From Asparagopsis taxiformis (lineage: Eukaryota; Rhodophyta; Florideophyceae; Bonnemaisoniales; Bonnemaisoniaceae): a stretch of DNA of 64,000 bases. Location of the stretch: assembly GCA_030407315.1 (NCBI GenBank), contig JALQPE010002815.1, positions 38,146 through 102,145 on the forward strand. The letters are read 5' to 3'. Each line of letters opens with the position of its first letter. Position 1 is the stretch's first letter. Below are positions 290 to 44,710 of the stretch, in pieces. The position numbers and the translations under genes are program-made. The notes beneath the pieces are model-generated. The model saw nothing but the letters and a program-made list of their open reading frames with translations. It was not told the DNA's origin and did no database searches.

Positions 290-1525
290 TTTGAGTGGTG
301 CTGCAGAGGTCAACGTGATTTAATCGGAGCGTCCAGCAACAGCGCGGCTAGTGTCGTCCAAGAAATCCTTGTTCCCGCTACATGTAGCTTTCGATCATTC
401 CTGGTTTCTTCGCCACAGTAATGATTCCAGAATACTGTAAAGCTGGGAACTGTATTATCTGACAAAAAAAATACAGACGCTTCCGCGCCAGTAGATTACG
501 TACTATTTAGTTGTAATGTGTCCTCTTTTTTCTGTCCGTTCCCGATACCGTATTTATCGGACATTATATAGACTGGTGGCGGCGCGACAAGCTTACAAAA
601 TTTTGTAAAATCCGGACTCCCATATTTTATTCCGCAAAGGTCCTACGACACGGCCCTCCCCTCAGGCCGACGCCCGGTGGAGGCAAAATTGGCCCGCTCC
701 AGCACATAAAACCTGACCCTTCACTGATCATGCCGAATCCCCGCCTGGCACCGCTGACCGACACCCCATTCGACTCCATCGCGCAGATCTTCCCTGCGTA
801 CGTCCGTCCCCGTCCAGCTGACGTCCGGCCATCCTCGCGTCGAGACGCTGCTTTTGTAGTTCCCTCTGTCCGCCGGGGACGTAATGGCCGACCGCCTTGG
901 ATGGCTCCGACGAACCAGACTGCGAAGTGATCCACTGGGGGAAGGGCACCGCGGAAGGATATTGCAGCCGAAGCAGCCAGTCGCCCGTTGTCGCACCGCG
1001 TCGATCGCACTCCAGTAACGCATACCAGTCTCGAAAACAAGCACATTGAACAAAAAGAAGGGTGCCATTGTTCCTACAGTACCGAATGAGATCGACTTGG
1101 AAGACTCCCAGAATTCACGACACCAGCAAACTCTTTGGGATTGCTCGGTGTGGGACTCGTCCCGTATTGCGCTGCGAGCGGTCGCGGGAGGGATAATTCC
1201 AGGCGTCTGGAATGGGCGCCAGGAGGGGTCGCTTAAGCGGTACGCTCGAGAGCGTGAGTGGGTGCTCGATAGGGAATCAGCCGCGAAGAGCCGCGTTGGG
1301 AATCAATGGCCGCGGTGACGTGGCAAGGCAATTGTCGCCCAAGGGCGAATGGGCGCGTGCCGCCTTGCATTGGCACCGGGCCACATTGCTTGCGCGGGAC
1401 CCTTCGGCACGCGTGCAACGGGTAGCGATATAGGCGCGATTAGTCACACACGTGTGCGAGCGGGAGGATTCTCCCGTTACAGTTGTGCACGTGTACGTTA
1501 CGGCTAGCCGTTTCTACTAGTTACA
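290..1525. other. no convincing gene; possible LTR edge near 650
   Basis: I see no credible coding region here. At 641-660 the bases TACGACACGGCCCTCCCC resemble the LTR/polypurine junction of Gy-1 (around 5081). A TATA-like CACATAAAACC follows at about 702-712. This would fit the 3' end of another minus-oriented Ty3/gypsy element whose body has decayed, but I could not find its other LTR. The short ORFs at 730-1433 overlap on both strands and look like GC-rich shadows. Confidence 0.3.
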
Positions 1526-1660: not shown

Positions 1661-2555
1661 GCTTACTCTGTAAGGCCCCTGGGCCGCATAAAAACCCCCA
1701 CAAGGTCCATTGGACGCCGGACCGGGACCATTGGTCCCGGTCCGGCCCCGGCAGTCTCGTTGACCATTTAAGGTCAACGGACTGACCACTAAGCTACAAT
1801 AAAGGCAGATCGTCTCGGTTCCAAATCTTTCGACCGTGGTCGTTTAACTTACAACTAAACGGCGGCGGCAATTCCTTCGCAGGATACCAGCCGCTCCGTT
1901 TCGATCTCCAATTGGGGATCGCTCGCACATTTCCCCAATTGCCCGCCGCGAGCCTCCTCCGGCGGGAGTGCACGTGGATTGCCCTAGGGCATTTCGTCTC
2001 CGCGGTAGTGGACCACCTTCCCGCTTCTTTTAACGACGTCAGGCGACCGGGAGTGGCCTTCCGCCCACCGGGACAAGGCTACCGACTGGGAGCGCTGTCG
2101 GTTCGGCACTCCCAGCCGGTCAACCGAGCTAACGCCCGTGGGCTTCTCAATCGGTCTCGACCGCAGCCGCCGGCGGTATCACAGTTGCGGAATCCGTCGT
2201 GTGGGCAGCCACGCGTGGAGGCGACCACAATTCCCCGCGGGGATCCATCGCGCTAAGTGCCTAGTTAACCCTTAAGTGGGTTGAGGACGGCCACGGCCGA
2301 TAGATCCCTCCGGCAGGTTAGATCCAGCCGCCCCGGACCCCGCTCTACCACCCGCTACCGGGTTGGGAGACAGGTGTCCGGGCTCCGAGGGATCGATCCA
2401 CCCGACACCGCCCTCGGGCTACTAGGATCGCACGAGGCACCAGCCTCGTGGAATCGTCGCTCTCACTCGTGAGTTCGAAGCCTTATCCCTATCCTCTAAT
2501 CCTCCTCGGAGGTATAATCTATCTACAAGGGCTAAGGTCCTACACTCAGGTCGCA
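1661..2555 (+). other. leader of the decayed antisense-ORF relic; TATA-like site near 1688
   Basis: The segment CTGGGCCGCATAAAAACCC at about 1679-1697 resembles the TATA region upstream of the Gy-2 antisense ORF (CTGGGCCGC at 32772-32780, then TATAAAAG at 32787). A poly(A)-signal-like AATAAAG lies at about 1798. The open stretch at 2281-2472 contains RYRVG in a basic context, where the intact homologue has the H3-like RYRPG. The match is too weak to claim an H3 tail here. The rest shows no coding signal. Confidence 0.3.
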
Positions 2556-3768
2556 CGGACGTTCGTCGCATCACTAAGAAACAAGCTCAGATTGGGCGTC
2601 CGGTAACGTGGAAGATAGACAGAGGGCGAATCGGCGGCTAGCGCTACTCGAATAGTGTCTCCAGAGCTCAGCTTCAACTGCTGTTTGGGTTACAAATTGG
2701 GAGCTTCACTGAAGCGGAGGAGTGTTCGGTTCTCACTGTCTAGGTGTGCCTCCGGCTATGTCTCACTGAGTCGTTTGGTGATCAGCATGTATACGGTGAG
2801 AGTGATGCCAACGAACCTTGGATAATCAAAGCCATCTGGTTCTCGACCGGCGCAGGTGACGAAGAAGAGGGTCGTTACTATGATCGGTAAGAATGTCGGC
2901 CCGGAGAGAAGGAAGATCCGATCGGCATCATAGACCTCTACACCATGACCTTCCGAAGAGAGTTTTTTTCGGACTTTGATAAAGGGGATCGTGCTCAAGC
3001 CGGCGCTACAGTAGTCGACGACGTTCCTTCTCGCGTAGGCCTCGTGCACGAGTACGACCACTGGTGCTCGAAAAATACTGGTATCCCGCTCCAGGTCAAT
3101 GAGGTAATGTCTCGGCCCCTGCCGTCCAAAGCAGAGCATTTCTTCGTCCGGTCAAAGGTCGTACCGATCCAAGACTTCCATGATTCTTGCATTCGAACCG
3201 CCGGGGCGAATGATATTGCCATCGTACATGGCAGGGCCGCTGCCAAGAATTTATTCCATGAGGAGGCCAAGCGGGACAAGGAGTGGCTTGCTATAGAGGG
3301 ATACCGCCCTAGAGTGAAGAGATTTAAGAACCTAGATCAAGCTCAGCAGGGTCGCCACAAGGTGCTCATCGGATGGGAGAAGCTCGAAAAGCCATACCAG
3401 AGAGACAGGGATGTCATCGTCGCTCAGCAGTGGGGTTGATTGCAGACCACTCTCCGGCATCCCCAGTTCCGCGGAACGTTCCTCATGAAGATCTTGGACA
3501 AGGAGGGCTTCGGGCACGTCATCTGAATCGACTCTTCTTCGGATCCGATATTGATCTACGACTGCGTTGAGTTTTGCGCCATGAGGCTCACGAAAGAATC
3601 CCTAGCCCTTCGCTGTAGCACCGGTAATGGTGAAGACTTCAAGGCTATTTCGGAACTGAGCTTCATCAATCGTCACGGTGCAACTCGGGATGCCAAGAGG
3701 GCGAAGCGCAGTCGAGAGGGAGCGAAGAAGAAGTCGGCCTCGAAGGGGAATGCTTCCGACCAAATTTA
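2556..3768 (+). pseudogene. decayed homologue of the Gy-2 antisense ORF
   Basis: Fragments in shifting frames follow the same order as the Gy-2 antisense protein (33056-34515). About 2570 reads VRRITKK against IRRSSDH. About 2706 reads SVLTV-stop-VCLRLCLTES against AISILTAEMACRLGLTES. 2766-2890 reads ESFGDQHVYGESDANEPWII against ESHGDTEKYAECPDDTDWII. 2925-2955 reads GIIDLYTMTFRR against HRIDLYTMVFRQ. 3130-3240 reads HFFVRSKVVPIQDF against HFFVGTPRNRVVVPV-stop-DF, and the final KRAKRSREGAKKK matches a basic tail. Several frameshifts and stops make it a pseudogene. It shows that the Gy-2 antisense ORF belongs to a wider, protein-conserved family and that the 33770-33918 segment was once coding. 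The longest surviving piece is 2945-3439. Confidence 0.7.
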
Positions 3769-3800
3769 GGTTGCGGCTAGCTCAACTGGCACATCCGGCG

Positions 3801-16097: not shown

Positions 16098-16160
16098 CGT
16101 GAAGATGATTGTGAAGGAAAATTTCTCTCAAAGAGACTTACCCGAGGGTACAAGGTTCTA

Positions 16161-16173
16161 GGTCGAGAGACCA
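16161..16173 (-). other. Gy-1 primer-binding site
   Basis: On the minus strand TGGTCTCTCGACC begins one base after the 5' LTR end CTACA. It starts with TGG, complementary to a tRNA CCA end. The same 13 bases recur after the Gy-4 LTR at 18695-18707, which indicates that both elements use the same primer. I cannot name the tRNA. Confidence 0.75.
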
Positions 16174-16174
16174 A

Positions 16175-27535: not shown

Positions 27536-30500
27536 TCAATCTTCGTTCCCACTTAATCTCGCTCTCGCCTCAACGATCCCGTCAACCACTCTTATGGCAA
27601 ATCGTCTCCTCTTCTCCTCCTCCACAATTCCGCTATCGTTGGTAGCCATTTCCAAGTTTTCGATCCCGGTAATCCTTCCCAGCTTGCTCAGCGTTTCGAA
27701 AATGTCTTTCACCGAACCGCCTTCTTCAGCCAATCTTTGCCAGACGCGCTCCTTCTCGAAAACATTTTCTCCATCCTTGTTCAACTTGCCTACAATCGCC
27801 GAGACGTCCTTGCATTCATCAAGCGACAGTCTATAGAACGCTGAGATGATCACGATCTCCTCTTCACCCCCCTCCTCGAATCGACGCATGAAGCACATCA
27901 ATTCCTTCATAGTCCATTTGCGGGCTGCAAATTCCGGCGAAAGAATCACAACTGCGATAGATGCAGTTTCCATCGCCTCGTTCATCTTGTTCCATGCGTC
28001 CTCCCCGGGTTGTAGTTCATTCTTGTCGAGAAATACCGTGAAACCAAGCTTGATCAATTCATCGTATATTACCTGTGCAATCGGCAATTTGTCCGGCCCC
28101 GCATGACTGATGAACACTGAGTACCTCTTCCTTGTCTTCTTGCTAGATCCCTTGTTGCGTACAGATGGTTCAGCAAATATGGGCGCCTGCTTCGGAGGCG
28201 TTTCTTCAGATGTGCTGCTTACCAAGTCTATCCAATGAACTCTACCATCATGTCTTCCCCACATCCACATGCGTTGCAATACCGCGCTATACGACGATAC
28301 GGTGGGGTTCCGTTCCAATGTACCGACTGCATGTGTATTGCCCCGATCCTGAAGAACGACACGGAAAAAGTCATCGTTTCCCCTGCAGACTATGCGAGTC
28401 GCAGCCACGATTTCCCCGTCATCGTCGAAACTCTTTCCGAGTCGCTCTGCATCTGCAGAAGACTTTTGCTCCCCTGTCAATGTACTCCATGCAAAATCCC
28501 CGACTCGTTCAGTCTTGAAATTCATCACTTTCGCAACCAGGCATGTTCCATCATGATTGAAGCGCATTGCGGTTGCACGAAGTGGCTCAGCTGAGTGCTC
28601 GTCCTGACCTGCTTTCACTGCTTGCAACCGATTGTCCAACATTTGTAGACGCTGAACTGTCGCTTCGTTGCGTACATCCACGACGTAGATCGCTGAGTTC
28701 TCGAAATACAGCGTGTACGCTATGAAAGCCTGATCGTCCGACACAGCGATTAGATGAACGCCACTGTCTTCCGTCTTCAGTTTGAACTCTGCTATCACAT
28801 GGTTCTTCATCTTACATGCATCCTCTGCATCGTGCAACTGTACTCGTCTAGAAGATTCACAATACGTGACCAAGGTCAAACCATTTGCAGACACTCCGGA
28901 AGCCGTTACGTTATCCAAGAAACCAGCGTCAGGTTCTTTGAAATCGCTGCATATATCCATCCGTCGCTGCGTTCGCCAGGCGAATACAATATCGCTGGGA
29001 TGTGAGAAGTGGAACAGTTCGGATTCATCTTCGCTAAGGAACAGCGAAACTACTCTGGTCATGCGATGATCCCGTAATGAATACATGAGATCGGCGCCGT
29101 TTGACAGGTTGCTCACATTCCAGACGTTGATGACACGGAGTCCACCCGAATAGAGCACTGTCCCGTCTCTACTGAATACGAGAGAATCCATCCATCCCGA
29201 GTTTAGAGCTTCCAGTATGTACTTCCTTCTATCTTGTCGGAGATCCCATAAGTATACGAATCCGGAGTCACTTCCAGATGCAATCAGCGTTCCATCGCTA
29301 CTCATGGCGATGCAGAAAGAAGCATGCGACAAATCATCTGCAAGTTTTTCACCGATCTGATCCCACGTTTCCGTATTCCACAGGCGAATGGTATTATATG
29401 ACGCGGAAGCGATTACCTTCTCTGTACTTTCTGTCGCCAGATTTAGTACAACTCGGTCACCAGAAGATATACTCCTTATAATTGTACCACTGTCGATGTT
29501 CAATATCTTCAGCTGCCCCAGACTGGTACCAAGCACGATAATCCCCTGCTTCTGCAACAGCGACATACATGTAATCTCGCAGGCAGCACTGTTCCTAGAC
29601 CGCTCATCACCATCAGATATGACCCGTACTACCCGCTCACATATGTAATCTTTCCACAAGATCAACACGCCATCCGTGCTGCAAGAATACATTTTTCTCG
29701 AACTAGTGTCAACACAGACGCCGACAATATGGTCGTCATGTCCATTGAGGTCATGAATTTCCGACGCATCTCTTCTGTCAATTACACGAAGTTCTCCATC
29801 ATCGCCTGCAACCACCAGCTCACCATCTGTCATTCCGAGCTGCACGCACGTAAGCTTGAATCGTAGACGCGCATGCAGCGCGCGTTTCAGACCGCTACCG
29901 GCGCTTTTCAGTACGCCGGGGCCTGCGCGAACCCACGGCTGCTCGGCATAAGTCTCCACGCTGTGCATTAGTTGGCTCAAGATTTGCGAGTCTGTTCGCA
30001 ACGAAACCAAGCGGCCGTAAAGTTGAAACGCGCATTCTCGACGATTTTTCGTGCAATGCGGGACCATACATAGCAGCATGGTATCAATTACTAGACCGAT
30101 ATCATTTGTCAGACTTTGCTTCCCGTTGTCTTTGTTCTTCTCAAGACATTGTTGCAGCAGTACTAGATCAGCGATTACTTTCTCAAATGGCGGACGTGAA
30201 TGATCGCTATTGATAAATTGTATCCATCTGTAGTCGATCAAGAGTGCCAGAGCGTGCTCCTCCCTTCCTGCGCCTAGAAGATGGCGAATGAGGTTGTCTT
30301 CAATGTATCCTGCTCTATTGAAATGTCTCTTCTTGACAAACGAATCGAGGTACAAATGTCCTTGGTACATATCTGTACCCAATTCGCGACAATATTTTTC
30401 AACAATCATTGCATGCCAATGACGGGTGCCTTCGTTCTCCACGGCTGAAACTGTGCAAAACTCATGCACAAGGTCGTGTAATCGCAAACCTTTTGCATTG

Positions 30501-31693
30501 CCATCATCGCTAAACTCGCATGAACACAGGTTATGATCGGCAAGCAGATCGAGGATGCTCTCCGCACGCGAGTAATCGACATGCCACATTGCGGCGAGAT
30601 CATCCAACGGGATCCACATTTGCTTCTGGAGTACACATAGCGACGAGACGACTTGCCGAATTGTGATTTCTGCACTGCCGCATTTGGTAGCTAGAAATTG
30701 CACGCTGGATTTGAGCGATGCGAACAATCCATCATGTTCGGGTCCAACGGCGTTTCCAAGCTGTGCCATGTTTCTTCGCAGACTTGAGCAGTATTGCACC
30801 CAGACGTTCTGTTCGTGGTTTTTGCGCTGCTGCGTGATTGCCCGACGAACAGAGGTTCCAGCAACTGCAAGCGCTAGCGGAAGACAGTGGCATCTGGCTA
30901 TAATGTCGTGAAATGCTTCGCTGGTTGTTGGAGAAAAATCGTCAATGGCAGATATGTCAATCGCAGCGTAATGGCAGAGAATTTTCCTGGCAGTCTCGTG
31001 ACCGACTGACGCATTGACGTCTACGATCTTGTCGTGTATAGTGTTGAGACTGACTTGAACGGATCTGGTAGATGTGAGAACTTTGAAACGATTTGTGCGT
31101 AATGAGCACACCTGCGAGCAGAACCTGGCCACGAGTTTGTAAACGCCGTTTCGGTCATCGGCGACATTATCGAAGATGACGAGAAAATGCTTGGCTGATA
31201 GACGGTCGACCAGGTCGATGAGCAGGGTGTCGTGCTGCTCCTCCGACGCGGACATTTGTTCAAAGTGTGGCAACCAGCGTGGGAAGGTACGCTGGACTAG
31301 TGCACGGAATTGACGGAGAAGAGATTGTACGGTGGCGTCCTGTCCGAGCTGAATGAACCAGATGCCGTGTTGAAACTGAGAGCAGATTTGAGGCAGATGA
31401 GCAAGCTGTCTGAGACGTGTTGTTTTGCCACAACCGCCCATGCCGACCAATGCGACTGTGTTGTGATGCGCCGCTTGGGATTGTAGATAACATTTGGCCT
31501 GCGACTCTGGCGTGGTTGGGTCATTGAAGTCGAGTATGGCGTCTGTGTTGCTTGGTACGTTGAAGATTTGGGGCCTTTTGCGCGTCAACGTCTCGAACCA
31601 GGCTAGCAATTGATCCATTTGTGGGGATGACGTCTTGGTGGGGAGCGTCAGGTGATGAAGTATGGCATATGTGTTATGAGTATGCTGTGTCAT
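27536..31693 (-). CDS. NB-ARC-WD40-TIR protein, innate-immune/STAND NTPase type
   Basis: A 1385-aa single-ORF protein starting at the ATG 31691-31693. Residues about 80-430 form an NB-ARC switch: P-loop GMGGCGKTT (about 84-92), Walker B FLVIFDN, KVLTSTRS, the GLPL-like CLPLALAVAG, and an MHD-like LHDLVHEFC. A helical linker follows, then WD40-type repeats at about 610-1130 (DGVLILWKD, NTIRLWNTET, SGFVYLWDLR, RVINVWNVSN). The C-terminus (about 1190-1330) is a TIR domain beginning YSVFISHAG, with a Glu near 1264 in WTMKEL where TIR NADases carry their catalytic Glu. Known STAND receptors use the repeats to sense a ligand and NB-ARC to oligomerise; here the effector would be the TIR. The order is the reverse of plant TIR-NB-LRR proteins. 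The ligand is unknown. Confidence 0.9.
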   Translation of the reverse strand: MTQHTHNTYAILHHLTLPTKTSSPQMDQLLAWFETLTRKRPQIFNVPSNTDAILDFNDPTTPESQAKCYLQSQAAHHNTVALVGMGGCGKTTRLRQLAHLPQICSQFQHGIWFIQLGQDATVQSLLRQFRALVQRTFPRWLPHFEQMSASEEQHDTLLIDLVDRLSAKHFLVIFDNVADDRNGVYKLVARFCSQVCSLRTNRFKVLTSTRSVQVSLNTIHDKIVDVNASVGHETARKILCHYAAIDISAIDDFSPTTSEAFHDIIARCHCLPLALAVAGTSVRRAITQQRKNHEQNVWVQYCSSLRRNMAQLGNAVGPEHDGLFASLKSSVQFLATKCGSAEITIRQVVSSLCVLQKQMWIPLDDLAAMWHVDYSRAESILDLLADHNLCSCEFSDDGNAKGLRLHDLVHEFCTVSAVENEGTRHWHAMIVEKYCRELGTDMYQGHLYLDSFVKKRHFNRAGYIEDNLIRHLLGAGREEHALALLIDYRWIQFINSDHSRPPFEKVIADLVLLQQCLEKNKDNGKQSLTNDIGLVIDTMLLCMVPHCTKNRRECAFQLYGRLVSLRTDSQILSQLMHSVETYAEQPWVRAGPGVLKSAGSGLKRALHARLRFKLTCVQLGMTDGELVVAGDDGELRVIDRRDASEIHDLNGHDDHIVGVCVDTSSRKMYSCSTDGVLILWKDYICERVVRVISDGDERSRNSAACEITCMSLLQKQGIIVLGTSLGQLKILNIDSGTIIRSISSGDRVVLNLATESTEKVIASASYNTIRLWNTETWDQIGEKLADDLSHASFCIAMSSDGTLIASGSDSGFVYLWDLRQDRRKYILEALNSGWMDSLVFSRDGTVLYSGGLRVINVWNVSNLSNGADLMYSLRDHRMTRVVSLFLSEDESELFHFSHPSDIVFAWRTQRRMDICSDFKEPDAGFLDNVTASGVSANGLTLVTYCESSRRVQLHDAEDACKMKNHVIAEFKLKTEDSGVHLIAVSDDQAFIAYTLYFENSAIYVVDVRNEATVQRLQMLDNRLQAVKAGQDEHSAEPLRATAMRFNHDGTCLVAKVMNFKTERVGDFAWSTLTGEQKSSADAERLGKSFDDDGEIVAATRIVCRGNDDFFRVVLQDRGNTHAVGTLERNPTVSSYSAVLQRMWMWGRHDGRVHWIDLVSSTSEETPPKQAPIFAEPSVRNKGSSKKTRKRYSVFISHAGPDKLPIAQVIYDELIKLGFTVFLDKNELQPGEDAWNKMNEAMETASIAVVILSPEFAARKWTMKELMCFMRRFEEGGEEEIVIISAFYRLSLDECKDVSAIVGKLNKDGENVFEKERVWQRLAEEGGSVKDIFETLSKLGRITGIENLEMATNDSGIVEEEKRRRFAIRVVDGIVEARARLSGNED

Positions 31694-32490
31694 AACGGAT
31701 GTTTATGATGAATAAGTGTAATGATATGAGCAGGAATACACTTTCCATAGTGTATTTCAGTACACTACAATGGGGTGTACGAAAAATGAAGTGTACCATC
31801 TCAATAGAGTGCCAATATATTCTGTCCATGTTCGCAATGAAATTGCCCGGCTGAGTGACGGAACCGCCTTACGAATCGTTTGTCAGACGAGATCACACAC
31901 CGACAGACATGATCGGCCAAAGCCTTTGCTCACAACTTGATTCCACCCCAACGCCGCGCTCTCCAAATCGCGACTGGAAGCGCCGAAACGCATCGGAATG
32001 GAAAACTCCACGCAAGCTCATCGCATTCTACGCTCGTCGATCCGTTCAGTAAGGACGAATTATGACCCAACAATCGCGACCACGCATGCACATCGCATCA
32101 CGTTTTGCATCTCATCACCGACTCCAATTCATCGTTGCTACCGTATCTTCTCTTGTACAACGACACGAATGGCCTGCAAAGTCGAAACGCGTCTCATCGT
32201 ACACGTATCCTTTGTTTGACGTTCTGTCGCTCATCGCAACCGCCGCGTTACTTCCTATCTGGACTACGAACCGCACGTTCGGCTCGTATTGCTAGACTAT
32301 AAAGAATGTTGTGCCTGCGCAGACACTAGAGTTGGCATGTCGCCTAGTTATATGGATATCCCAACACGCGCCCGCTCCCTGGGCAAGCGGTGAAGCGGTA
32401 GGAGGCGTAGCAGCCTGAGGCATTGGAGCCTGTCTTGATTAGATAGGAGTCTTGTTGTTGGCTTGTCGTAGCGGGGTTTGTCGTCGCTAT
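31694..32490. other. intergenic region, putative NLR promoter
   Basis: This region lies between the divergent NB-ARC gene and the membrane-protein gene, now separated by Gy-2. Near 31760-31800, just upstream of the NLR start, are repeated GTGTAC/AGTACACT-type motifs (AGTACACT at 31770-31777). A short ORF at 31855-32052 has no recognisable feature. A 76-bp segment at 32292-32367 is duplicated at 39630. Confidence 0.4.
32292..32367 (+). repeat. 76-bp direct repeat, copy 1
   Basis: Nearly identical to 39630-39706 (AAGAATGTTGTGCCTGCGCA and CGCCTAGTTATATGGATATC). Removing Gy-2 leaves the copies about 310 bp apart, so it is a tandem duplication in the intergenic region, later split by Gy-2. Copy 1 has CTATAAAGA where copy 2 has CTAAAAAGA. 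Confidence 0.8.
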
Positions 32491-32722
32491 TGTTGTACGT
32501 GGCCACGTGACGGGGAGAGAAAACGATGTAGGTTGTAGAAACGTAGATAGATTGATTTTACTAAGTCTAGCTTATCTCCCTCTAGGTTATTCCGACCGCT
32601 GGGAGCTGTATTTAGCTTCCTACGGTTGGACGGCTGGAAACTTCCAGACGTCCACCTAACCCTAAATTAAAATTCTGGTAGAAATTACCTGTAGAATTTT
32701 TCTTGTAAAAGTCATTTCCACA
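32491..32722 (-). repeat. Gy-2 3' LTR
   Basis: On the minus strand it runs TGTGGAAATGAC to GTACAACA. It is identical to 39285-39516. A purine-rich stretch precedes it on the body side. Confidence 0.95.
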
Positions 32723-32738
32723 TGACCCCCCGGCCAGA
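32723..32738 (-). other. Gy-2 polypurine tract
   Basis: On the minus strand GGCCGGGGGGTCA directly precedes the 3' LTR start TGTGGAAATG. The position is right for a polypurine tract, although the run is short and mixed. Confidence 0.55.
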
Positions 32739-32786
32739 CCGAGGCACCGAGGAGGTCTAATTTCGCAGGTTCTGGGCCGCGCTCGG

Positions 32787-32794
32787 TATAAAAG
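32787..32794 (+). promoter_or_regulatory. TATA box for the Gy-2 antisense ORF
   Basis: TATAAAAG sits in a GC-rich context, 262 bp before the antisense-ORF ATG and outside the LTR. A run of TTACTGTAAG-like motifs follows at 32855-32925. A similar TATA-type site precedes the related relic (about 1688), and TATTTAAG precedes the Gy-3 relic (60778). This suggests that the antisense ORFs have their own internal promoters. Confidence 0.55.
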
Positions 32795-33055
32795 CCGGCA
32801 GTACTTTCGCGTGGGTCTGGACTCCAGACCCTCTTCCACCGCTGACCCCTTCCTTACTGTAAGCACTGTAAGTACTTTACAGTAGTTGGTAGCTTACTGT
32901 AGTGCGATAACTTACAGTAAACGTCTGTTTGCAGCCATCCCACTTCCCGCCTTCCCTTCGGTCGTCTCTCCGAGCACCCTGCGTAGTCGCGGTCATCGAT
33001 TTGTTGAGATCTTGCTTACGTGGGCCTTTCGGTACCTGGTGGGTGATCCATTGAG

Positions 33056-34515
33056 ATGGCCAAGACGAAACAGACCGCAAAGAAGTCGACTGGGGGGACT
33101 GCCCCTCGGCAGGAGCTAGCTGCTCGGGCGGCGCGGATTCCCAGACGAGACCCTCCCGCGGCTCCTGGCACCTACCGTCGCGAGGGCGGCCAGGAGGTAC
33201 GCTATCGCCCCGGGGAAGCCGTCCCCGTGCGGGCCAACGAGGTTAACTTCGACGACAAATCCCATCGGGGAATTCGTCAGAACCTCTTCCGTTGGTTCGG
33301 ACGTGAAGACGTCCAGAACATCCGCCGCTCCTCCGACCACCGTGGTCGTTTCGTCGTCGACTTTGGCCGAAATCGTCGCGATCCGTGCCAAGTGACGGCC
33401 AGGGAACTAGAGTTCCTCTTCGGGCCTCAAATCGTCGAATTCGCCTCCGATCCGGCCATCTCCATCCTTACCGCGGAGATGGCTTGTCGTCTCGGTCTCA
33501 CCGAATCCCACGGTGACACCGAGAAGTACGCCGAATGCCCCGACGACACCGATTGGATCATCGAGAAGATCTGGTTGTCGAAGGGAGGTGAGAACGGCGA
33601 ACTGGAAGGCTGCTTCTATGCCTCCGCCGAAGGGGAGCGAACCGGCCATCGAATCGATCTGTATACCATGGTTTTCCGTCAGGTCTCCGAACCGGCGGAG
33701 CGCGACGCGGCACTCCAGGAGCAGGATAACCCCTCTCCTGTGACCAGAGGGAATGGTCAACCCTCGCGGGTGAGTTTAATAGCCAGCATCGACGCTTGGT
33801 GTTACAAGAAACCTGGGAAGAAGAAACGAGTCAATGTCGCCATAGCTCGGGTGCCCTCCCTCGAAGCCCCCCATTCTTCGTGGGGACTCCTCGGAACCGC
33901 GTGGTGGTACCTGTGTAGGACTTCACCAACAACTGCCTGCGTGCCGCGGCCGCCAATGGGATCGCTCTCGTGTGCGATTTTAACACGGCCGATAGGTTTT
34001 TCCGTCGGGAGCTGGCTCGGGACGAAGAAGAACGCCTTGTTCGAGGTTATTGTACTAGTGTCGTGGACTTTGGTTCTGTCTCGAAGGCCATCGATGATCG
34101 TGCTCCTTCAACAGTGACTCTGCCCCGGGTGGCGATCCCCCATTTCGACCTAGGAGCCCCAGATTCGCGCTCTAGGCAATGGGCGTGGTTACGGGAGAAA
34201 CTTTCGAGGGAGCCGGACGTATACGTGGTGCAGGTTTGGAGTCGAGATGGCCTGAAACACGCCATATGTATCGACTCTCGTACCTGGCCTGGTCTCATCT
34301 ACGACTCCTCTGAAGCCTTTGTGATGAGTCTAGAGCCTCGGGCATTCTTCTTATGTTGTAGCACCAGTAAGTCGTCGGATTTCTCCTCCTTCAACGATCT
34401 TCGACGCGTCCAACGGGAGGGTTCGAATCCAGAGGAGAAGCGCGCTAAGCGACAGCGCATGAGGAAGCGCGAGAAGGTTCGCAAAGCGAAGATCGACGGT
34501 GAGGGGTTGTCTTAG
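33056..34515 (+). CDS. Gy-2 antisense ORF with N-terminal histone H3 tail mimic
   Basis: The protein starts MAKTKQTAKKSTGGTAPR. Against canonical H3 (ARTKQTARKSTGGKAPR) I count 19 identities in the first 26 residues after Met, keeping K4, Q5, T6, K9, S10, T11, R17 and R26. K14 becomes T, K18 Q and K27 I. About 20 residues later RYRPG matches the H3 residues that lead into the core, but no histone fold follows. The next segment (FRWFGREDVQNIRR, ESHGDTEKYAE, HRIDLYTMVF) is unknown and conserved in the relic at 2556-3768. The first frame is open to 34117. The homologous C-terminal part lies in another frame (to 34515), with a stop at 33916-33918. Either the copy carries a frameshift and nonsense change, or a 149-nt intron (33770-33918, GTGAGT...TAG) joins the frames in phase, giving about 436 aa. 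Confidence 0.8.
33770..33918 (+). other. candidate intron or decayed coding segment in the Gy-2 antisense ORF
   Basis: GTGAGT at 33770 and TAG at 33916-33918 lie in matching phase 0. Removing them joins frame 2 to frame 1 and deletes both the frame change and the stop. Against this, the segment still aligns with coding sequence in the relic (DAWCYKK/DHWCSKN, HFFV, VVP), and I see no clear branch point or pyrimidine tract. Both readings remain open. Confidence 0.4.
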
Positions 34516-34680
34516 CACAGAACGATTTGATAGAGAAGGAAATGAATCGTATTGAGTAGACTAGCTAGTAATGGGTAGAGAGATCTAGAATTGAAATGAA
34601 TGCGTAGACAAGGGTTGAATGATTAAAAGGGATTATGCATAAAAGGGAGTGTGCAAACGAAGGGTTTCCCTAGTGGAAAC

Positions 34681-37600
34681 TTAATGCAGTAGATGTAGTG
34701 GACGCCTACGGAAGAGAAGTAGACGTCTCGCATGGATGGGGCGGCGTGATACCTTCGCTTGGTCGGAGGCGAGTAGGTATCGGGGGTGGCTAGATTGGAT
34801 GACCTTAAACGGTCCGTACCACTTGGTTTCGAACAACGACAACTTCGTCGTTCCGAAAGCTTTCCCTTTCGCCACAAGGACCTCGTCGCCTACCTCGAAC
34901 CGACGTTCAGGTAGATGAGCTCGAGCTTGGGTATTGCGTAGATGCATTTCTACCCTGCTCGCTCGTTGCGACTGGAGAGCTAACATCTCAAACAGTCGGG
35001 ATTGAGGGTCCAGTGGACGGTCCAGAAGCGGTGACGGGTCGTGGGCGACTACCCTCGGGACTACTCCGTACATCAGTTCGAAGGGGGAGGTTCCGCCTGT
35101 CATGCAACGACGGCGATAACCGTAGAGAACGTGCGGAAGAAGCGTGTCCCATTCGACTGAGTCCCTTCCTTTGACTTTGGCTAAGGACCTCTTGATGGTC
35201 CCTACCATCCGCTCGGCTCGCCCGTTAGACATGGGGGAGTACTCAAGCACGGTCTTCCAATCGATCCCGTTGCTCTTCATGAAACTCGCGAGTGTCGCAG
35301 CTGTGAAACACCCCGCATTGTCGGATACAATGGTAGTTGGGGGACCGAACGAGTAGATGATCTCATCCTTCACGAAATTGAGTACGACATCCGCGGTACT
35401 AGCTGCGGTGGCCCTGGAGATAGGCCAGCCAGTGAGGTGTTCGACGGCGATGAGAAGGAATCGGTTACCTTTGGCCGTGCGCGGGAGCGGTCCCGCAAAG
35501 TCGATGGAAAACGTGTGGAAAAGGCCTGTCAACGGCTGACTCAGGGTAGTCCGATAGCGGGGTACCGGTTTATTCTTCTGACACCCCTCACAACTCCGAA
35601 CGTAGTCGTGAATGTCCTTGCCCATACGCGGCCACCAGTAACGTTCCACGATAAACTGGCGGGTCGAGGCAGCGTCCCAATGACCGATGTTGTCGTGGAA
35701 CATTTGCAGGATCTTGATTCGGAGCGGAATCGGTGCGACTACCTTGGGTCCCAACGCGGTGCGGCGAAAGAGCTGGTCTTCCCAGACTATGAAATCCTTG
35801 GAACTCCGTCGAACCTTTTGTCGAGCGAGACCCTCTACTTCGGGCTCAGCTCCACCCCGTAAGTATTGGAACACTGCGACTAGGTCAGGTTCTATGCGGA
35901 GGGTTTCCGGAATGGCGAGCAGTGCGAGGTCGCCCTCATCTTCTCCTGACCCCGGAGCGGTATGGGTTTGTTCTAGACGGGACAGAAAGTCTGCAGCGGA
36001 GTTCTGTTTTCCCGGCCTGAACGATATGACGAAGTCGTATTCCGCGAGGAAGTCGAGCCAACGGGCAAGTCGCCCGTGTATATCCTTCTTCTGGAATGCG
36101 TATTGCAACGCTTGGTGATCCGTCATCAGCTTGAAGGGCTGGGTGGACAGAAGGTAGAGTCGGAATTTCTTCAGTGCGAAGATAACTGCTAGGGCCTCTC
36201 GTTCGCATGCCGAATATTTTCGTTCGGCCGCATTCATCGTCCTACTCGCGAATTGAATAGGATGAATACGCCCGTCTTCCTTCTTCTGCGCTAGGACAGC
36301 TCCGACGGATACGGAGGAGGCATCTGTCTCGACTACGAAGGTATTATCGAAGTCAGGGAAGGAAAGGACGGGAGCCGAAGTTAGTTTTTCCTTCAGCGTC
36401 CAGAAGGCCTGATTCATCTCCTCTGTCCACTCGAAGGAACGTCCAGAAGAGGTATATGGGAATAGAGAAGCCGAGAGGTCAGCAAACTCCTTAATGAACC
36501 GGCGATAGTAGCCCGCCAAACCGAGGAAGCTGCGGAGCTCGGAAGCGGTTTGCGGCGGAGCTACGTCTCTAATGGCAGAAATCTTGGCGGGGTCTACTGA
36601 CACCCCATCGTGGCTAACGATGTGACCAAGCAACTCGACTTTAGGTTGAGCGAAGAAGCATTTGACGATCTTCAGCTTCAAACCCCTCTGACTTAAAGTC
36701 TCGAAAAGGATACGAAGGTGGGAGATGTGTTCTCCCATGTTTTTAGAGAATACCACAACGTCGTCGAGATACGCTCGGACGAACGGAAGATCCTTGACCA
36801 TCTCATCCATCATCCTCTGGAAGGTGGACGGGGCATTCATTAGTCCAAACGGCATAACTTCGAACTTGTAGGTACCGTAACGGGTGACGAAAGTCGTCAT
36901 CTCCTTGCAAACGGTATCCATTCGAATCTGCCAATACCCAGAGAAGAGATCGAGAGTGGTGAAGAGGGAATTTCCTCCCAATTCATCGAAAATCTCTTCG
37001 ATCCTGGGTAAGGGCCAACGATCGGGTTTGATCTTCCGATTCAGGATGCGGTAGTCGACGCAGAAACGAGGTTTCCCGTCCTTCTTCGTAGCAATGACCA
37101 CCGGGAAGGACCATGCTGATGAGGCCGGGGTGATGATTCCCGCTTCCAGCATGCGATCGATTTCGGATCGTACTACCTCGTTGTGTTTCGGCGACAACCG
37201 ACGAGGTTGGTGGTAGACAGGGGTGTCGTCTTCCAGCTCAAAAGAGTGTTTAACAGGGACGTCGGCTTTCCTGAGATCGTGAAAGGACCAAGCTACGATT
37301 CCGTAGTCCTTCAACGACTCCGATATAACTCGTCTATCCGAGGGTGATAGATGCACGAGTTTTTCTTCGATGAGCTTGTCATGCTCTTCGGTCTCAGAGA
37401 GGTCGCTCTCCTCTTCGACCGCTATTTGCGGCTTGGCGAAATCAACGTGGGCGACAATTAGCGTACCTTCGTCTTCTTCGCCTGAAGAAGTCGTCGAGGC
37501 TCCTTCATCGGTGCTGAGAGACGTGAAGTCTTCGCTTTCACTACCACCCTGGGGAAGGAAGTGGAGGCCGTTATCGGGTTCTAGCCCAATCCTTGCCGAT

Positions 37601-39300
37601 TCTTTGCCGAGTTGTATCTCAACGACTCGACTCCCAATATCCAGTTTAGCCTGTAGATCCTCCATGGCCGGTAAGCCGATGATGAGGCCGATAGGTGCCT
37701 TTTCAATGGTGAGGAAATCCATGGAAGCTGTGAGGTTTCCAAAGGTTATGGGCACATCTTTGACACGACCAATACAGTTGGCGCTCGACCCATCTGCGAC
37801 TGTAATCCTCTGCTTGGTACGCTTTGGCAGGAGGCACAACTGACGGGCGAGATCAGCAGAGATGATATTGGGTATAGCCCCAGTATCCAGGAGCGCGCGA
37901 ATCTCTCGACCATAGATACGAACTGGCGCGACTATCAGAACTCGTTTGTTCTGAACGTTTAAGGCTGGCGCAGCCTTACTCGGTCGGCGATTCTTAAGAG
38001 GCGAGAAGAGACGTCGCATCTCTTTGGCGGCTTCGGCGGCGTCTCCACGGAGGAGTTGGCCGAACGTGAGGCCTGTAGACGCATTAGCGAGCTCTCCAAC
38101 AACGTCGTACTTTCCGACGTGATCTTGAAGAACCTTCTTGGAAGTGTTCTTTTTCTTCGCCCTGCGGTTTTTCTTCCCTCGGATGGGAAGAGGCTCCAGT
38201 TGCAAGGGAGGTAGGATACGACCAGGCGTTGGGCGCATCAGGTTTTCAGTGTTGATCCCCTCAGCTCGACGTTGCTTCGGAACCGCTTCTCCAGTCATGG
38301 TACGTTTCGTAGTACCAACAACATCGGGAGTTGCGGTTACAACGGTAACTTGATTCGAACGGGAGGAATCGTCCCTGCCGGTAGAGGGGCTCCTCTGCTT
38401 CTCCGTGCCCTTCTGGCGACTATAGCATGTCGCGACAGAATGACCCAAACGACCACATTTCGAGCAACGGGTGTCTCGGTGAGGGTTTTCGGGGCAGGAG
38501 TTAGCCCCATGTCCAGGCTTCTGACAGAAGGAGCAAGGACGAGGCGTTTCGCGCCTATCCGATGAGGATGCTCCTGTCTGCTTGCGGACGATGAGGGAGA
38601 GCTCAGCGAGTTGCTCCGCTAGCTTGTCCACCTTGTTCTCCACCTGTGACGTTCGTGCGTCGGGACGGTTCAGGACCCGCTTAGATCCAAAGGTGGAATC
38701 GAGCGGGTGCTGTTTCTCTGTATCGTGATACGGGACGGAAGAGAGGAAGTCCTTGCGACCCTGGTCGAAGTCACGCACCACTTTCTTGAGGTCGGTGTAG
38801 TGCGTGGCACCGCGATAGATCGCGAACTGGGCCAGTTCTGGGAAGCGGGAGAGTGCATTCCTCAGAAGGCCAAACTTAGCTTCATCATTGAAAGATGCCT
38901 TTTCGAACAGACGATCCATAGTTTTGAGCGAGCCGACAAGATCCTCGGGATCCAGTACCGCATTGATGGCACTGCGGATATCGTCACTCGGCTCTGTCTT
39001 GACTCCGAAACGATCGATGAAGGCCTTCTTGACGAGGGCGTAGTTCATAGCCTCTTCCGTCAGCGCTCCATCCTTGGCGAACGTTTCGTAGTAGAAGTCG
39101 AATGCCTCGCCCTCGAGGTGGGCGAGGAGTTCGAGAGCTTTCTCCTCGTCGGACTTGCCGCGCATAGCGACGTTCTCGAAGAAGAAGAAGAACTTCTTGA
39201 CGTCGGAAGAGAGAGAGCCGTCCATCTTAGCAGTGGATGGACCCGCCTGCTGGTTCGGGTCGTCGGCCCTCCACAAGAGTACCATGTTGTACGTGGCCAC
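34681..39300 (-). CDS. gag-pol: Gy-2 gag-pol polyprotein
   Basis: A 1539-aa single-frame polyprotein. The Gag part carries two CCHC knuckles (CSFCQKPGHGANSC and CSKCGRLGHSVATC). A retropepsin site LLDTGAIPN follows. Reverse transcriptase has TTLDLFSGYWQ and AYLDDVVVF; RNase H has VVETDASSVSVGAVLA. Integrase has an HHCC site (HDNIGHWDAA to CEGCQKN) and catalytic D-D-E (SIDFAGPL, IVSDNAGCF, GRAERMVG). It ends with a basic tail and has no chromodomain, unlike Gy-1. The first ATG (39300) lies in the last 16 bp of the 5' LTR; the next (39285) is at the LTR/primer-site junction, so there is essentially no leader between LTR and Gag. The frame is fully open. Confidence 0.95.
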   Translation of the reverse strand: MATYNMVLLWRADDPNQQAGPSTAKMDGSLSSDVKKFFFFFENVAMRGKSDEEKALELLAHLEGEAFDFYYETFAKDGALTEEAMNYALVKKAFIDRFGVKTEPSDDIRSAINAVLDPEDLVGSLKTMDRLFEKASFNDEAKFGLLRNALSRFPELAQFAIYRGATHYTDLKKVVRDFDQGRKDFLSSVPYHDTEKQHPLDSTFGSKRVLNRPDARTSQVENKVDKLAEQLAELSLIVRKQTGASSSDRRETPRPCSFCQKPGHGANSCPENPHRDTRCSKCGRLGHSVATCYSRQKGTEKQRSPSTGRDDSSRSNQVTVVTATPDVVGTTKRTMTGEAVPKQRRAEGINTENLMRPTPGRILPPLQLEPLPIRGKKNRRAKKKNTSKKVLQDHVGKYDVVGELANASTGLTFGQLLRGDAAEAAKEMRRLFSPLKNRRPSKAAPALNVQNKRVLIVAPVRIYGREIRALLDTGAIPNIISADLARQLCLLPKRTKQRITVADGSSANCIGRVKDVPITFGNLTASMDFLTIEKAPIGLIIGLPAMEDLQAKLDIGSRVVEIQLGKESARIGLEPDNGLHFLPQGGSESEDFTSLSTDEGASTTSSGEEDEGTLIVAHVDFAKPQIAVEEESDLSETEEHDKLIEEKLVHLSPSDRRVISESLKDYGIVAWSFHDLRKADVPVKHSFELEDDTPVYHQPRRLSPKHNEVVRSEIDRMLEAGIITPASSAWSFPVVIATKKDGKPRFCVDYRILNRKIKPDRWPLPRIEEIFDELGGNSLFTTLDLFSGYWQIRMDTVCKEMTTFVTRYGTYKFEVMPFGLMNAPSTFQRMMDEMVKDLPFVRAYLDDVVVFSKNMGEHISHLRILFETLSQRGLKLKIVKCFFAQPKVELLGHIVSHDGVSVDPAKISAIRDVAPPQTASELRSFLGLAGYYRRFIKEFADLSASLFPYTSSGRSFEWTEEMNQAFWTLKEKLTSAPVLSFPDFDNTFVVETDASSVSVGAVLAQKKEDGRIHPIQFASRTMNAAERKYSACEREALAVIFALKKFRLYLLSTQPFKLMTDHQALQYAFQKKDIHGRLARWLDFLAEYDFVISFRPGKQNSAADFLSRLEQTHTAPGSGEDEGDLALLAIPETLRIEPDLVAVFQYLRGGAEPEVEGLARQKVRRSSKDFIVWEDQLFRRTALGPKVVAPIPLRIKILQMFHDNIGHWDAASTRQFIVERYWWPRMGKDIHDYVRSCEGCQKNKPVPRYRTTLSQPLTGLFHTFSIDFAGPLPRTAKGNRFLLIAVEHLTGWPISRATAASTADVVLNFVKDEIIYSFGPPTTIVSDNAGCFTAATLASFMKSNGIDWKTVLEYSPMSNGRAERMVGTIKRSLAKVKGRDSVEWDTLLPHVLYGYRRRCMTGGTSPFELMYGVVPRVVAHDPSPLLDRPLDPQSRLFEMLALQSQRASRVEMHLRNTQARAHLPERRFEVGDEVLVAKGKAFGTTKLSLFETKWYGPFKVIQSSHPRYLLASDQAKVSRRPIHARRLLLFRRRPLHLLH
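39271..39284 (-). other. Gy-2 primer-binding site, inside the gag coding start
   Basis: On the minus strand TGGTACTCTTGTGG follows the LTR end ACA directly. It begins TGG, as expected for pairing with a tRNA 3' CCA, and is also read as codons of Gag (ATG GTA CTC). It differs from the primer site shared by Gy-1 and Gy-4. Confidence 0.6.
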
Positions 39301-39516
39301 GTGACGGGGAGAGAAAACGATGTAGGTTGTAGAAACGTAGATAGATTGATTTTACTAAGTCTAGCTTATCTCCCTCTAGGTTATTCCGACCGCTGGGAGC
39401 TGTATTTAGCTTCCTACGGTTGGACGGCTGGAAACTTCCAGACGTCCACCTAACCCTAAATTAAAATTCTGGTAGAAATTACCTGTAGAATTTTTCTTGT
39501 AAAAGTCATTTCCACA
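39285..39516 (-). repeat. Gy-2 5' LTR
   Basis: Identical by eye to 32491-32722. The gag-pol frame is open into its U5 end. Confidence 0.95.
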
Positions 39517-39810
39517 GCTATGATGTAATTGGCGGTAGTTGCGTCACCGTGATGAATAAATTATGATTCAGCGGTGCCTGTGAGAATCCAACTCACGCAA
39601 TCCGGTTAGGGATAACGGCCCATAACCTGTTAGACTAAAAAGAATGTTGTGCCTGCGCAGACACTAGAGTTGGCATGTCGCCTAGTTATATGAATATCCC
39701 AATACGTATACGCCGCGGCATGGCGCGTTTTGCAATGCGTAACAGCTCCTGTCAACGTTGTGGTTGCCCATTCCTGCGTCGGGAGGCGCTATCAGTTGCT
39801 GTAGATTCAC
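39517..39810 (+). other. upstream region of the membrane-protein gene
   Basis: Contains copy 2 of the 76-bp repeat (39630-39706), 104 bp before the ATG. Near 39579-39595 is the hairpin GTGAGAATCCAACTCAC, which resembles a tRNA T-arm, but no complete cloverleaf could be drawn. The region is a probable promoter, disturbed on its upstream side by Gy-2. Confidence 0.4.
39630..39706 (+). repeat. 76-bp direct repeat, copy 2
   Basis: See 32292-32367. It lies immediately upstream of the membrane-protein gene and may include its core promoter. Confidence 0.8.
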
Positions 39811-43605: not shown

Positions 43606-43882
43606 TAGGCCTGTGCATGGTCCCACTTTGGTCCGAAATCTGGTTAGAATACGAATAGTGGACCGAACTTGAACAGTCCAATGATTAGCCAGAAACAGAC
43701 TGCAGTCTCAGACACGTTGACGAATTGGGACTGCAGTCCTGATACATACGTTCATGAAGGATTTGGACCGGACATTGAACCCTCGGAAAGGACCTCACTG
43801 GCGGCTCCCTATTGTGGACCGAACCGTGCAGGACCGCAGTCTCATGGACTGAACTACCCTTTACTCCATATATCGATTCCAG

Positions 43883-44710
43883 GAATTCAGGGCCGTTCCC
43901 AGGAAAAATTCTGCACGGGAAATTTGTATGCACGTGCACGAAACGATGGAATAGAGACTTTTGATTGGCTCCATGTAGAAGTGAGTGAGACACCTTGCAC
44001 AGAACAGTCAAGCCCGAAAACGTACCGAGATGATAAGTTTAAAACTCCAAGTCTCTGCAAGTGCGCCACTTGTAAGTTATACGATGGGGGATCACTGAGG
44101 TATCCCGAGTGCTAGCTTTTTCTCTTCAGTAACCTCTCATAGCGGAGGATGCCATGGAGCGGACGGATCTTGGAGTGGACCACTATTACACGCCTTTACT
44201 TGACCATCTTCTAAATTTTGCTTGCTGTGCTCCCCACTGGGGGGGGGGGAGATTAACGCGGTTGTAGGTGGATTGGATTGACTCCTTTCCATTAGAGCGC
44301 ATGAGTAGACTGTTTCAACTTGTGCCAATCTGCTTAGATACAGAGAATGCTGGGGATGGGCGTTAGACGTGAGGTTTGGAAGCTTTACAACGTACGAGGA
44401 TCTTCTGACCCGGTATGATCGGGTCAAGTACAGGCGGGTACTCGTGGTCCGATCGAGGATCCGGCCGCTCCTTGGCATCCTCCGCTATGCTAGGATACCG
44501 AAAAGAACAAGCTAGCACTCATGATACCTCAGTGATTCCCCATCGTACCACTTACAAGTGGCGCGCATGCAGAGATCAGGAGTTCAGTAGTTCAATAAAA
44601 GTAGTTTAACATATTAACATATGGAGCCAATCAAAAGTCTCTATTCCATCGTTTCGTGCACGTGCATACAAATTTCCCGTGCAAAATGTTTCCTGGGAAC
44701 GGCCCTCAGA
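43883..44710. repeat. large imperfect inverted repeat over the 3' end of the hAT gene
   Basis: Two nested pairs of arms, 43883-43985 with 44612-44710 and 44055-44165 with 44462-44570, match inversely at high identity (for example CACGTGCACGAAACGATGG and GCCACTTGTAAG). The outer right arm includes the last about 23 codons of the hAT transposase. A G11 run lies at about 44244-44254. A transcript across it would fold into a long hairpin. Confidence 0.85.

What the first reader, a model, noticed from the sequence alone, without database searches (positions are those of the whole stretch)
33056..33230. A retrotransposon gene that begins with a histone H3 tail
The antisense ORF of Gy-2 opens with AKTKQTAKKSTGGTAPR. 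Over 26 residues I count 19 identities to the canonical H3 tail, and three of the seven changes are Lys/Arg swaps. K4, T6, K9, S10, T11 and R17 are kept, and RYRPG, the H3 sequence leading into the core, follows about 20 residues later. No histone fold follows; an unrelated domain is attached instead. The sites read by H3K4- and H3K9-specific machinery are present, while K14 and K27 are lost. A capture of host H3 used as a decoy, a tether to chromatin readers or an inhibitor of silencing would explain this. I know of no described LTR retrotransposon with this arrangement, but I could not search.
Basis: partly seen in the sequence, partly recalled or inferred. Interest (0 to 1): 0.95.

Follow-up and report, generated by a model that had tools for sequence, protein, structure and literature searches.

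The report
Retrotransposon accessory protein wearing histone H3's tail
A family of jumping genes in a probable red alga carries, on the strand opposite its own genes, a protein that begins with a near copy of the histone H3 tail joined to an unrelated domain, and selection has kept that tail across three diverged lineages, so it probably lets the element handle proteins that read or write chromatin.

Summary
The ORF at 33056-34117 lies antisense between pol and an LTR of a complete Ty3/Gypsy-type element (32491-39516; identical 232-bp LTRs; target duplication GCTAT). It starts with 26 residues of which 19 match host H3. It is no single-copy fusion: the 41 copies I fetched all carry the tail, and a genome search with the first 45 residues of host H3 finds 3 H3 genes, 51 copies of this ORF and one weak stray. 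A second element family (B) and an unnamed database protein (P0003, about 30% identical) begin with the same tail, which is far more conserved than the rest (Fisher p 5e-5 to 2e-4) although synonymous sites are near saturation. Intact copies encode 486 aa; the window copy's frame is disrupted after about residue 273. The body has no known family; invariant Cys, His and Asp suggest, but do not show, a cysteine protease. Capture and conservation: well supported. Histone-tail mimicry as mechanism: likely, untested. Transcription: untested.

The parts
32486..32490 (.). 5-bp target-site duplication GCTAT (left copy)
   Evidence: identical to 39517-39521
32491..32722 (-). LTR, 232 bp, TG...CA; the 3' LTR as seen from gag-pol
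   Evidence: 100% identical to 39285-39516; 40 matches in the genome, only 40 of 112 candidates being scored
33056..34117 (+). antisense accessory ORF (aORF), 353 aa in this copy; intact copies 486 aa
33056..33136 (+). start Met plus 26-residue histone H3-like tail
   Evidence: 19/26 identical to host H3; PDB phmmer E 2.7e-7 for an intact copy
33200..33214 (+). RYRPG, same as H3 residues just before its core; in the host H3 gene on C578 the inferred intron interrupts the Gly codon of RYRPG
   Evidence: statistically weak; absent in family B and P0003
33257..33874 (+). conserved middle part of the aORF (about residues 68-273), no known family
   Evidence: aligned across A, B, P0003, P0004; no Pfam family near its cut-off
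33907..34488 (+). C-terminal half of the aORF in another frame of this copy, one stop inside; putative cysteine-protease-like part in intact copies
   Evidence: match to P0003 residues 244-428; invariant C/H/D in A6
34681..39285 (-). gag-pol ORF, 1534 aa: aspartic protease, RT, RNase H, integrase; no chromodomain found
   Evidence: Pfam
39285..39516 (-). LTR, 232 bp; the 5' LTR as seen from gag-pol
39517..39521 (.). target-site duplication GCTAT (right copy)
901..987 (+). H3-like tail of a second, degraded family-B aORF copy in the window (one stop inside)
2546..3790 (+). body of a degraded family-B aORF copy, several stops; probably the same copy as 901-987, split by inserted sequence (inference)

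Best explanation
An ancestor of these algal Gypsy-type retroelements acquired the N-terminal tail of a host histone H3 at the start of an accessory gene that runs antisense between pol and the 3' LTR. The gene has since been inherited with the element in at least two families (A and B) in this genome, and a relative of the protein with the same tail exists elsewhere (P0003; its best match in this genome is 31% identical). Shown here: the homology of the tail, its placement at the start Met, its multi-copy conservation, and purifying selection on the protein. Inferred: after Met removal the protein presents an H3-like N-terminus (Ala1 in A and B) to host proteins that grip the H3 tail (readers, writers, erasers or chaperones), engaging or occupying them, while the body of the protein (possibly a cysteine protease or deubiquitinase-like domain) acts at that place. 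The net effect would be relief of silencing or targeting of element components to chromatin. In this view the tail is a bait or pseudo-substrate rather than a faithful substrate: the K14 acetyl site is gone or displaced in all three lineages, and in family B K4 and K9 are gone as well, while the surrounding residues stay.
For: Tail in 41 of 41 fetched loci (30 A, 11 B) and, at E up to 10, in 51 retroelement places against 3 host H3 genes and one stray. A, B and P0003 agree in 18-20 of 27 tail positions against 27-36% elsewhere (Fisher p 4.7e-5 to 2.1e-4, one protein per lineage). H3 against A: 19/26 residues identical while 14-18 of those 19 use different codons (pS 0.77-1.04, pN 0.20); A against B: pS 0.73-0.82, pN 0.18-0.23; as a yardstick the two host H3 genes differ at pS 0.69, pN 0. 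Among 10 B tails pooled pN/pS is 0.13. Whole aORF dN/dS 0.14-0.29 in 18 of 21 pairs. S10, T11, G13 are unchanged in 41 of 41 loci, P16 in 39, R17 in 40, while K14 is kept in 0 of 41. K8 instead of R8 is the majority state in A (24 of 30) and B (10 of 11) and is present in P0003, which fits one shared origin. Integrase of A and B is 45% identical over 198 residues, similar to the aORF (38-45%), which fits co-inheritance. H3-tail mimicry by a virus is documented: influenza NS1 ARSK mimics ARTK and is still modified by methyltransferases (PMC10612106, passages). An antisense accessory protein of the maize Grande element is nuclear (PMC7264820, parts 1 and 2 of 3).
Against: No transcript, protein, localisation or binding evidence. 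In the Copia-like-associated relatives no H3-like start was seen, though those copies are degraded. Two A loci (L028, L029) have R8 like H3 and four have T8, so K8 is not universal. Within family A alone the tail has too few changes to show selection (0-3 nonsynonymous differences per pair, dS 0-0.19), and its low dS hints at some constraint on the DNA itself. The protease reading rests on motif only: no Pfam, NCBIfam or relevant PDB profile match, and both AlphaFold models are poor (pLDDT 34.8 and 40.7). One A-like copy (C64:49653-50663, three stops) matches only from residue 13.
Confidence: 0.6

Rival explanations
1. The H3-derived tail is only a basic nuclear-import or DNA-binding leader; the H3 resemblance reflects its source, and any basic peptide would do.
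For: Net basic charge is kept roughly (H3 nine, A seven, B seven Lys/Arg among 26, counted from the sequences). H3 tails act as import signals (recalled). An antisense protein of Grande is nuclear (PMC7264820).
Against: The uncharged positions (T6, S10, T11, G13, P16) are the conserved ones, while individual lysines change. The protein has a separate basic C-terminus in A, B, P0003 and P0004 that could serve import.
Confidence: 0.2
2. The body is a cysteine protease whose target includes the H3 tail; the protein's own H3-like start is a pro-segment or substrate mimic, and the element clips or de-modifies host H3.
For: Invariant Cys (C-x-R), Asn, His and Asp in the five sequences aligned, one per group; L20 is kept in 39 and A21 in 40 of 41 loci, a stretch where known H3-clipping proteases cut (recalled). 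OTU and Ulp1 protease domains occur in other transposable elements (PMC2836005, passages).
Against: No profile match to any protease, no usable model. The Cys is changed in one B copy read (L050). No activity data.
Confidence: 0.12
3. The conserved 5' end serves the nucleic acid (antisense promoter, RNA or reverse-transcription signal), and the H3 resemblance is an inherited by-product.
For: dS within family A is 0-0.19 in the first 55 codons but 0.24-0.38 in the rest in 16 of the 18 divergent pairs; the other two pairs have 0.10 and 0.12 in the rest.
Against: Between A and B, and between each and H3, synonymous sites are near saturation while residues are kept; B tails change silently (pS 0.275 against pN 0.035). 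Divergence among five A copies is higher upstream of the ATG (0.135-0.18 from -220 to -100) than inside the ORF (0.03-0.08).
Confidence: 0.06
4. Neutral relic or chance resemblance.
For: Many copies carry stops or frameshifts, the window copy included.
Against: 0 of 2000 shuffles, 51 genome places, three lineages, dN/dS 0.14-0.29 in 18 of 21 pairs.
Confidence: 0.02

Closest known systems
Antisense additional ORFs between pol and 3' LTR (aORF-3R) of plant LTR retrotransposons: Grande gene23, RIRE2, Retand ORF4 (TRP28), PvRetro13
   Same: Same place and orientation, present in most copies, conserved as protein, function unknown; some Retand and PvRetro13 antisense ORFs match chromosome-protein domains such as Smc and Mis12 (PMC7264820, parts 1-2 of 3; PMC11963269, passages)
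   Different: The passages read report no histone-derived part (Retand paper: 'histone' 0 times in its main text); the body here matches no TRP28 or other Pfam family above its cut-off
Viral histone H3-tail mimics (influenza A NS1 ARSK tail)
   Same: A parasite protein exposes an H3-like segment (PMC10612106, passages)
   Different: NS1 has four residues in its C-terminal tail; here 26 residues sit at the N-terminus as in H3 itself, are homologous to H3, and lie in a retrotransposon
Chromoviruses (Gypsy elements with a chromodomain on integrase)
   Same: Gypsy elements that touch histone-tail biology (PMC3350952, search listing with start of abstract only)
   Different: They carry a reader; this element carries the read peptide. 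No chromodomain was found in the 1534-aa gag-pol
Host histone H3 (genes on C171 and C578 of this genome)
   Same: 19 of 26 tail residues; RYRPG in family A
   Different: No histone fold; K14 and K27 lost; a different protein follows
Transposable-element OTU or Ulp1 proteases (Ginger1, Mutator, Helitron)
   Same: TE-encoded, possibly a cysteine hydrolase (PMC2836005, passages)
   Different: No sequence-profile match; different architecture with an H3 tail

Membership tests
LTR retrotransposon, Ty3/Gypsy type | Paired LTRs with TG..CA ends and a target-site duplication | tested here: met
   232 bp, 100% identical, GCTAT on both sides
LTR retrotransposon, Ty3/Gypsy type | Protease, RT, RNase H, integrase in that order | tested here: met
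   Pfam stretches at 451-549, 734-890, 953-1083, 1185-1351 of the ORF
Chromovirus | Chromodomain at the integrase C-terminus | tested here: not met
   11 Pfam families found in gag-pol at E 0.1, none a chromodomain
aORF-3R (antisense ORF between pol and 3' LTR) | Antisense position between pol and 3' LTR | tested here: met
   window coordinates; same order at C1607 and C2495; family B ORF convergent with an integrase reading frame at L057
aORF-3R (antisense ORF between pol and 3' LTR) | Present in most copies and conserved as protein | tested here: met
   of 19 near-full matches to a 2001-bp pol probe, 17 have an aORF match within 4 kb on the expected side; C2436 and C1562 do not (my comparison of the lists; 40 of 64 pol candidates were scored); dN/dS 0.14-0.29 in 18 of 21 pairs
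aORF-3R (antisense ORF between pol and 3' LTR) | Own antisense transcript | not testable with these tools
   no RNA data
Histone H3 | H3 N-terminal tail | tested here: met
Histone H3 | Histone fold | tested here: not met
   no Pfam histone hit; residues 54-110 against H3 core at chance
Histone-tail mimic | Sequence resemblance to a histone tail at an exposed end | tested here: met
   tail starts at the ORF's first Met after a stop; exposure itself is inferred
Histone-tail mimic | Binding to, or modification by, H3-tail proteins | not testable with these tools
   needs experiment
Papain-like or OTU-like cysteine protease | Cys, His, Asp/Asn in this order | tested here: met
   invariant in the five sequences aligned, one per group, though changed in B copy L050; the catalytic role is recalled, not shown
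Papain-like or OTU-like cysteine protease | Profile or fold match to a known protease family | tested here: not met
   no protease among Pfam, NCBIfam or PDB profile results; the only PDB row was an Alba protein at E 0.048; AlphaFold models too poor for a fold search

The most novel reading that the evidence does not exclude
A clade of algal retrotransposons has turned the host's own H3 tail into a weapon: an antisense-encoded enzyme that presents an H3 N-terminus with its modifiable lysines progressively removed, so that chromatin writers and readers dock on it as on a nucleosome but cannot complete their reaction, while the attached hydrolase acts on them or on the adjacent chromatin. This would be an element-encoded histone-tail pseudo-substrate inhibitor of silencing, acquired once and kept across lineages.
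Probability: 0.3. Interest if true: 0.93.

Novelty: new variant of a known kind. Interest (0 to 1): 0.82.

Why it matters
Transposons are silenced through marks on the H3 tail, and known elements answer with readers (chromodomains). An element that carries the tail itself, kept by selection over long divergence, would be histone mimicry by a transposon. It would also give an antisense accessory ORF, a class whose functions are recorded as unknown (PMC7264820), a molecular handle. The natural variation (A: K4, K9, T14; B: N4, R9, R14; P0003: K4, K9 with a displaced K14) is a ready set of test peptides.

Tried and rejected
K4/K9 methyl-reader decoy as the sole explanation: rejected as general because family B lacks both lysines in 11 of 11 loci. 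Extension of homology into the H3 core: rejected (A 54-110: 789 of 2000 shuffles; B 46-110: 1091; P0003 29-80: 1834; P0004 1-75: 970 of 2000). RYRPG as proof that exactly H3 exon 1 was captured: attractive, because the intron of the C578 H3 gene, as I infer it from frame and GT..AG ends, interrupts the Gly codon of RYRPG, but left as suggestive since it was seen in family A only and shuffles reach its score in 66 of 2000. Structure: two AlphaFold jobs with 2 and 5 rows gave pLDDT 34.8 and 40.7, so no fold search was run. Viral relatives: a scan of viral contigs matched 15 stretches, none a relative. Known families: nothing convincing for the body. An upstream in-frame start in family B was considered and dropped because the upstream frame is shifted or stopped in L051, L052 and L058 and lacks a Met at that place in L050. 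Copia-like relatives L081-L086: read for an H3-like start, none seen; that they are Copia-like rests on a recalled RNase H motif, as Pfam found nothing in the L081 frame.

Full report
WHAT IS THERE. The + strand of the window opens an ORF at 33056 that reads MAKTKQTAKKSTGGTAPRQELAARAARIPRRDPPAAPGTYRREGGQEVRYRPGEAV. The first Met is the fourth codon after an in-frame stop. The host's own H3 genes were found on contigs C171 (two places, uninterrupted) and C578 (one inferred intron). Over 26 residues the ORF and H3 share 19. phmmer of an intact copy against PDB chains returns histone H3 at E 2.7e-7, and 0 of 2000 shuffles of residues 1-30 reach the H3 score. Beyond the tail there is no histone: no Pfam histone hit and chance-level similarity to the H3 core.

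THE ELEMENT. The ORF lies inside a complete LTR retrotransposon at 32491-39516: two identical 232-bp LTRs beginning TG and ending CA, flanked by the 5-bp repeat GCTAT, and a 1534-aa gag-pol on the minus strand with aspartic protease, RT, RNase H and integrase in Gypsy order. Seen from gag-pol, the H3-tailed ORF is antisense, between pol and the 3' LTR, and convergent with pol. The same order and spacing recur elsewhere; for example on C1607 an LTR lies at 39636-39867, the ORF from 40201, pol at 42847-44847 and the second LTR at 46432-46663. Of 19 near-full matches to a 2001-bp pol probe, 17 have an ORF match within 4 kb on the expected side; C2436 and C1562 do not (lists compared by eye).

COPIES. 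The window ORF is not the full protein. A six-frame search of the genome gave 103 matches; by my count of that list, 50 begin at residue 1 or 2: 38 of the window's family (A), 9 of a second family (B, 35-44% identical) and 3 host H3 genes. Twelve of the 30 A loci fetched encode an uninterrupted 486-aa protein, six of them identical over the ORF, and one more encodes 487 aa. The window copy leaves that frame after about residue 273, as do five other loci (L002-L006), and is probably inactive; its C-terminal half is present in another frame with one stop (33907-34488). A search the other way, with the first 45 residues of host H3, gave 55 matches up to E 10: 3 host H3 genes, 38 A and 13 B copies of this ORF (assigned by me from their positions, and for C2686:39046), and one stray at E 1.1. 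One of the B copies is a degraded one at 901-987 of this same window, with a body at about 2546-3790. So apart from the H3 genes themselves the H3 tail was found in this genome, at this sensitivity, only in these retroelements. Counts are lower bounds, as the tool states.

CONSERVATION. I fetched 41 loci (the 30 best A matches and 11 B places) and all 41 have the tail: two A loci and one B locus have lost the start Met, one A locus (L020) is frameshifted inside the tail, one (L027) has a stop in it. S10, T11 and G13 are the same in 41 of 41; P16 in 39, R17 in 40, L20 in 39, A21 in 40, G12 in 36. K4 and K9 are kept in 30 of 30 A loci but in none of 11 B loci (N4; R9 in 10, Q9 in one). K14 is kept in none of 41 (T in 29 A, L in the frameshifted one, R in 11 B). 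A profile search of 5.8 billion proteins, of which 7997 candidates were scored, found one more lineage, P0003 (442 aa, about 30% identical over its length), which starts MGRTKQTAKKSTGGKRIPRSYLAEKSAR: it keeps K4 and K9, and has K14 followed by an extra residue so that its spacing to P16 is changed. The other hit, P0002, is a 94% identical family-A protein. K8 in place of R8 is the common state in A (24 of 30; 4 T, 2 R), B (10 of 11) and P0003, which favours one origin. Against each other A, B and P0003 agree in 18-20 of 27 tail positions but only 27-36% elsewhere (Fisher p 4.7e-5 to 2.1e-4). Codons tell the same: between H3 and A, 14-18 of the 19 shared residues use different codons (pS 0.77-1.04, pN 0.20), between A and B pS is 0.73-0.82, and among 10 B tails pooled pN/pS is 0.13. 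The whole ORF has dN/dS 0.14-0.29 in the 18 of 21 pairs of distinct intact A copies with dS of 0.09 or more; two of the three near-identical pairs have 0.32 and 0.38 on few changes, and the third cannot be scored.

LIMITS OF THAT EVIDENCE. Within family A the tail has changed too little to measure selection by itself, and its silent divergence is lower than in the rest of the ORF in most pairs, which could mean an added constraint on the DNA. The nearest further relative, P0004 (28% to P0003), has no H3-like start in its predicted model; the start could not be verified because its DNA is not held. A more distant group found beside a Copia-like RNase H frame (L081-L086) shares the C-terminal part, and I saw no H3-like start there, but the copies are degraded. 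So the tail may have been added to an older antisense protein family rather than being present from its beginning.

THE BODY. It matches no Pfam, NCBIfam or solved-structure family convincingly. Five sequences, one per group, share an invariant Cys (C-x-R), an Asn seven residues on, a His followed five residues later by an Asp, and an Asp-x-x-Glu ten residues further on in the alignment; one B copy, L050, has lost the Cys. That order is what papain-like and OTU-like cysteine proteases have (recalled), and OTU and Ulp1 proteases are carried by other transposable elements (PMC2836005, passages), but the AlphaFold models were too poor to test it. A basic C-terminus in A, B, P0003 and P0004 could serve nuclear import.

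ORIGIN. The inferred intron of the C578 H3 gene interrupts the Gly codon of RYRPG, and family A's H3-like part ends with RYRPG. This would fit capture of H3 exon 1, but family B and P0003 lack RYRPG and the extra similarity is weak (66 of 2000 shuffles); I treat it as a lead.

MECHANISM. The best reading is protein-level mimicry of the H3 tail. What is kept is the pattern of residues around the lysines rather than the lysines themselves. This argues against a simple methyl-K4/K9 decoy, and for a peptide that occupies H3-tail-binding sites, in which acceptor lysines have been lost or displaced. The attached domain would then act on, or be delivered by, the bound chromatin factor. Every step after selection on the tail is inference. 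A basic leader is the main rival.

COMPARISON. [quoted passage not shown] In Retand elements some of them match chromosome-protein domains such as Smc and Mis12, so a link of such ORFs to chromosomes is not new in itself, but 'histone' does not occur in the main text of that paper (PMC11963269, passages). A viral H3-tail mimic is known (influenza NS1, PMC10612106, passages). I found no report of a transposon protein with an H3 tail in nine searches of the paper library, of which I saw listings and starts of abstracts; that library lacks most papers of subscription journals.

Noticed in passing
4399-16474: A second, apparently complete Gypsy-type element in the window: identical 300-bp direct repeats at 4399-4698 and 16175-16474, gag (14172-16097) and pol (9157-14172) on the minus strand, and a 1088-aa antisense ORF (5582-8848, +) with no Pfam or PDB match and no H3-like start. 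Target-site repeats were not checked. Antisense accessory ORFs may be common in this alga.
   Followed up: partly
L081-L086 (C72, C649, C3122, C69): A distant relative of the aORF's C-terminal half lies antisense beside a Copia-like RNase H reading frame (motif recalled), suggesting that the putative protease module has moved between retroelement superfamilies.
   Followed up: partly
27536-31693: A 1385-aa minus-strand ORF with NB-ARC, WD40 repeats and a C-terminal TIR domain: an NLR-like architecture in a probable red alga.
   Followed up: no
32290-32368 and 39628-39706: A 79-bp direct repeat (95%) lies just outside both ends of the element, not in register with the LTRs; possibly older repeats flanking the insertion site.
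   Followed up: no
1525-1657: A perfect 8-bp tandem array (ACGTAGCA) lies between the two parts of the degraded family-B copy.
   Followed up: no
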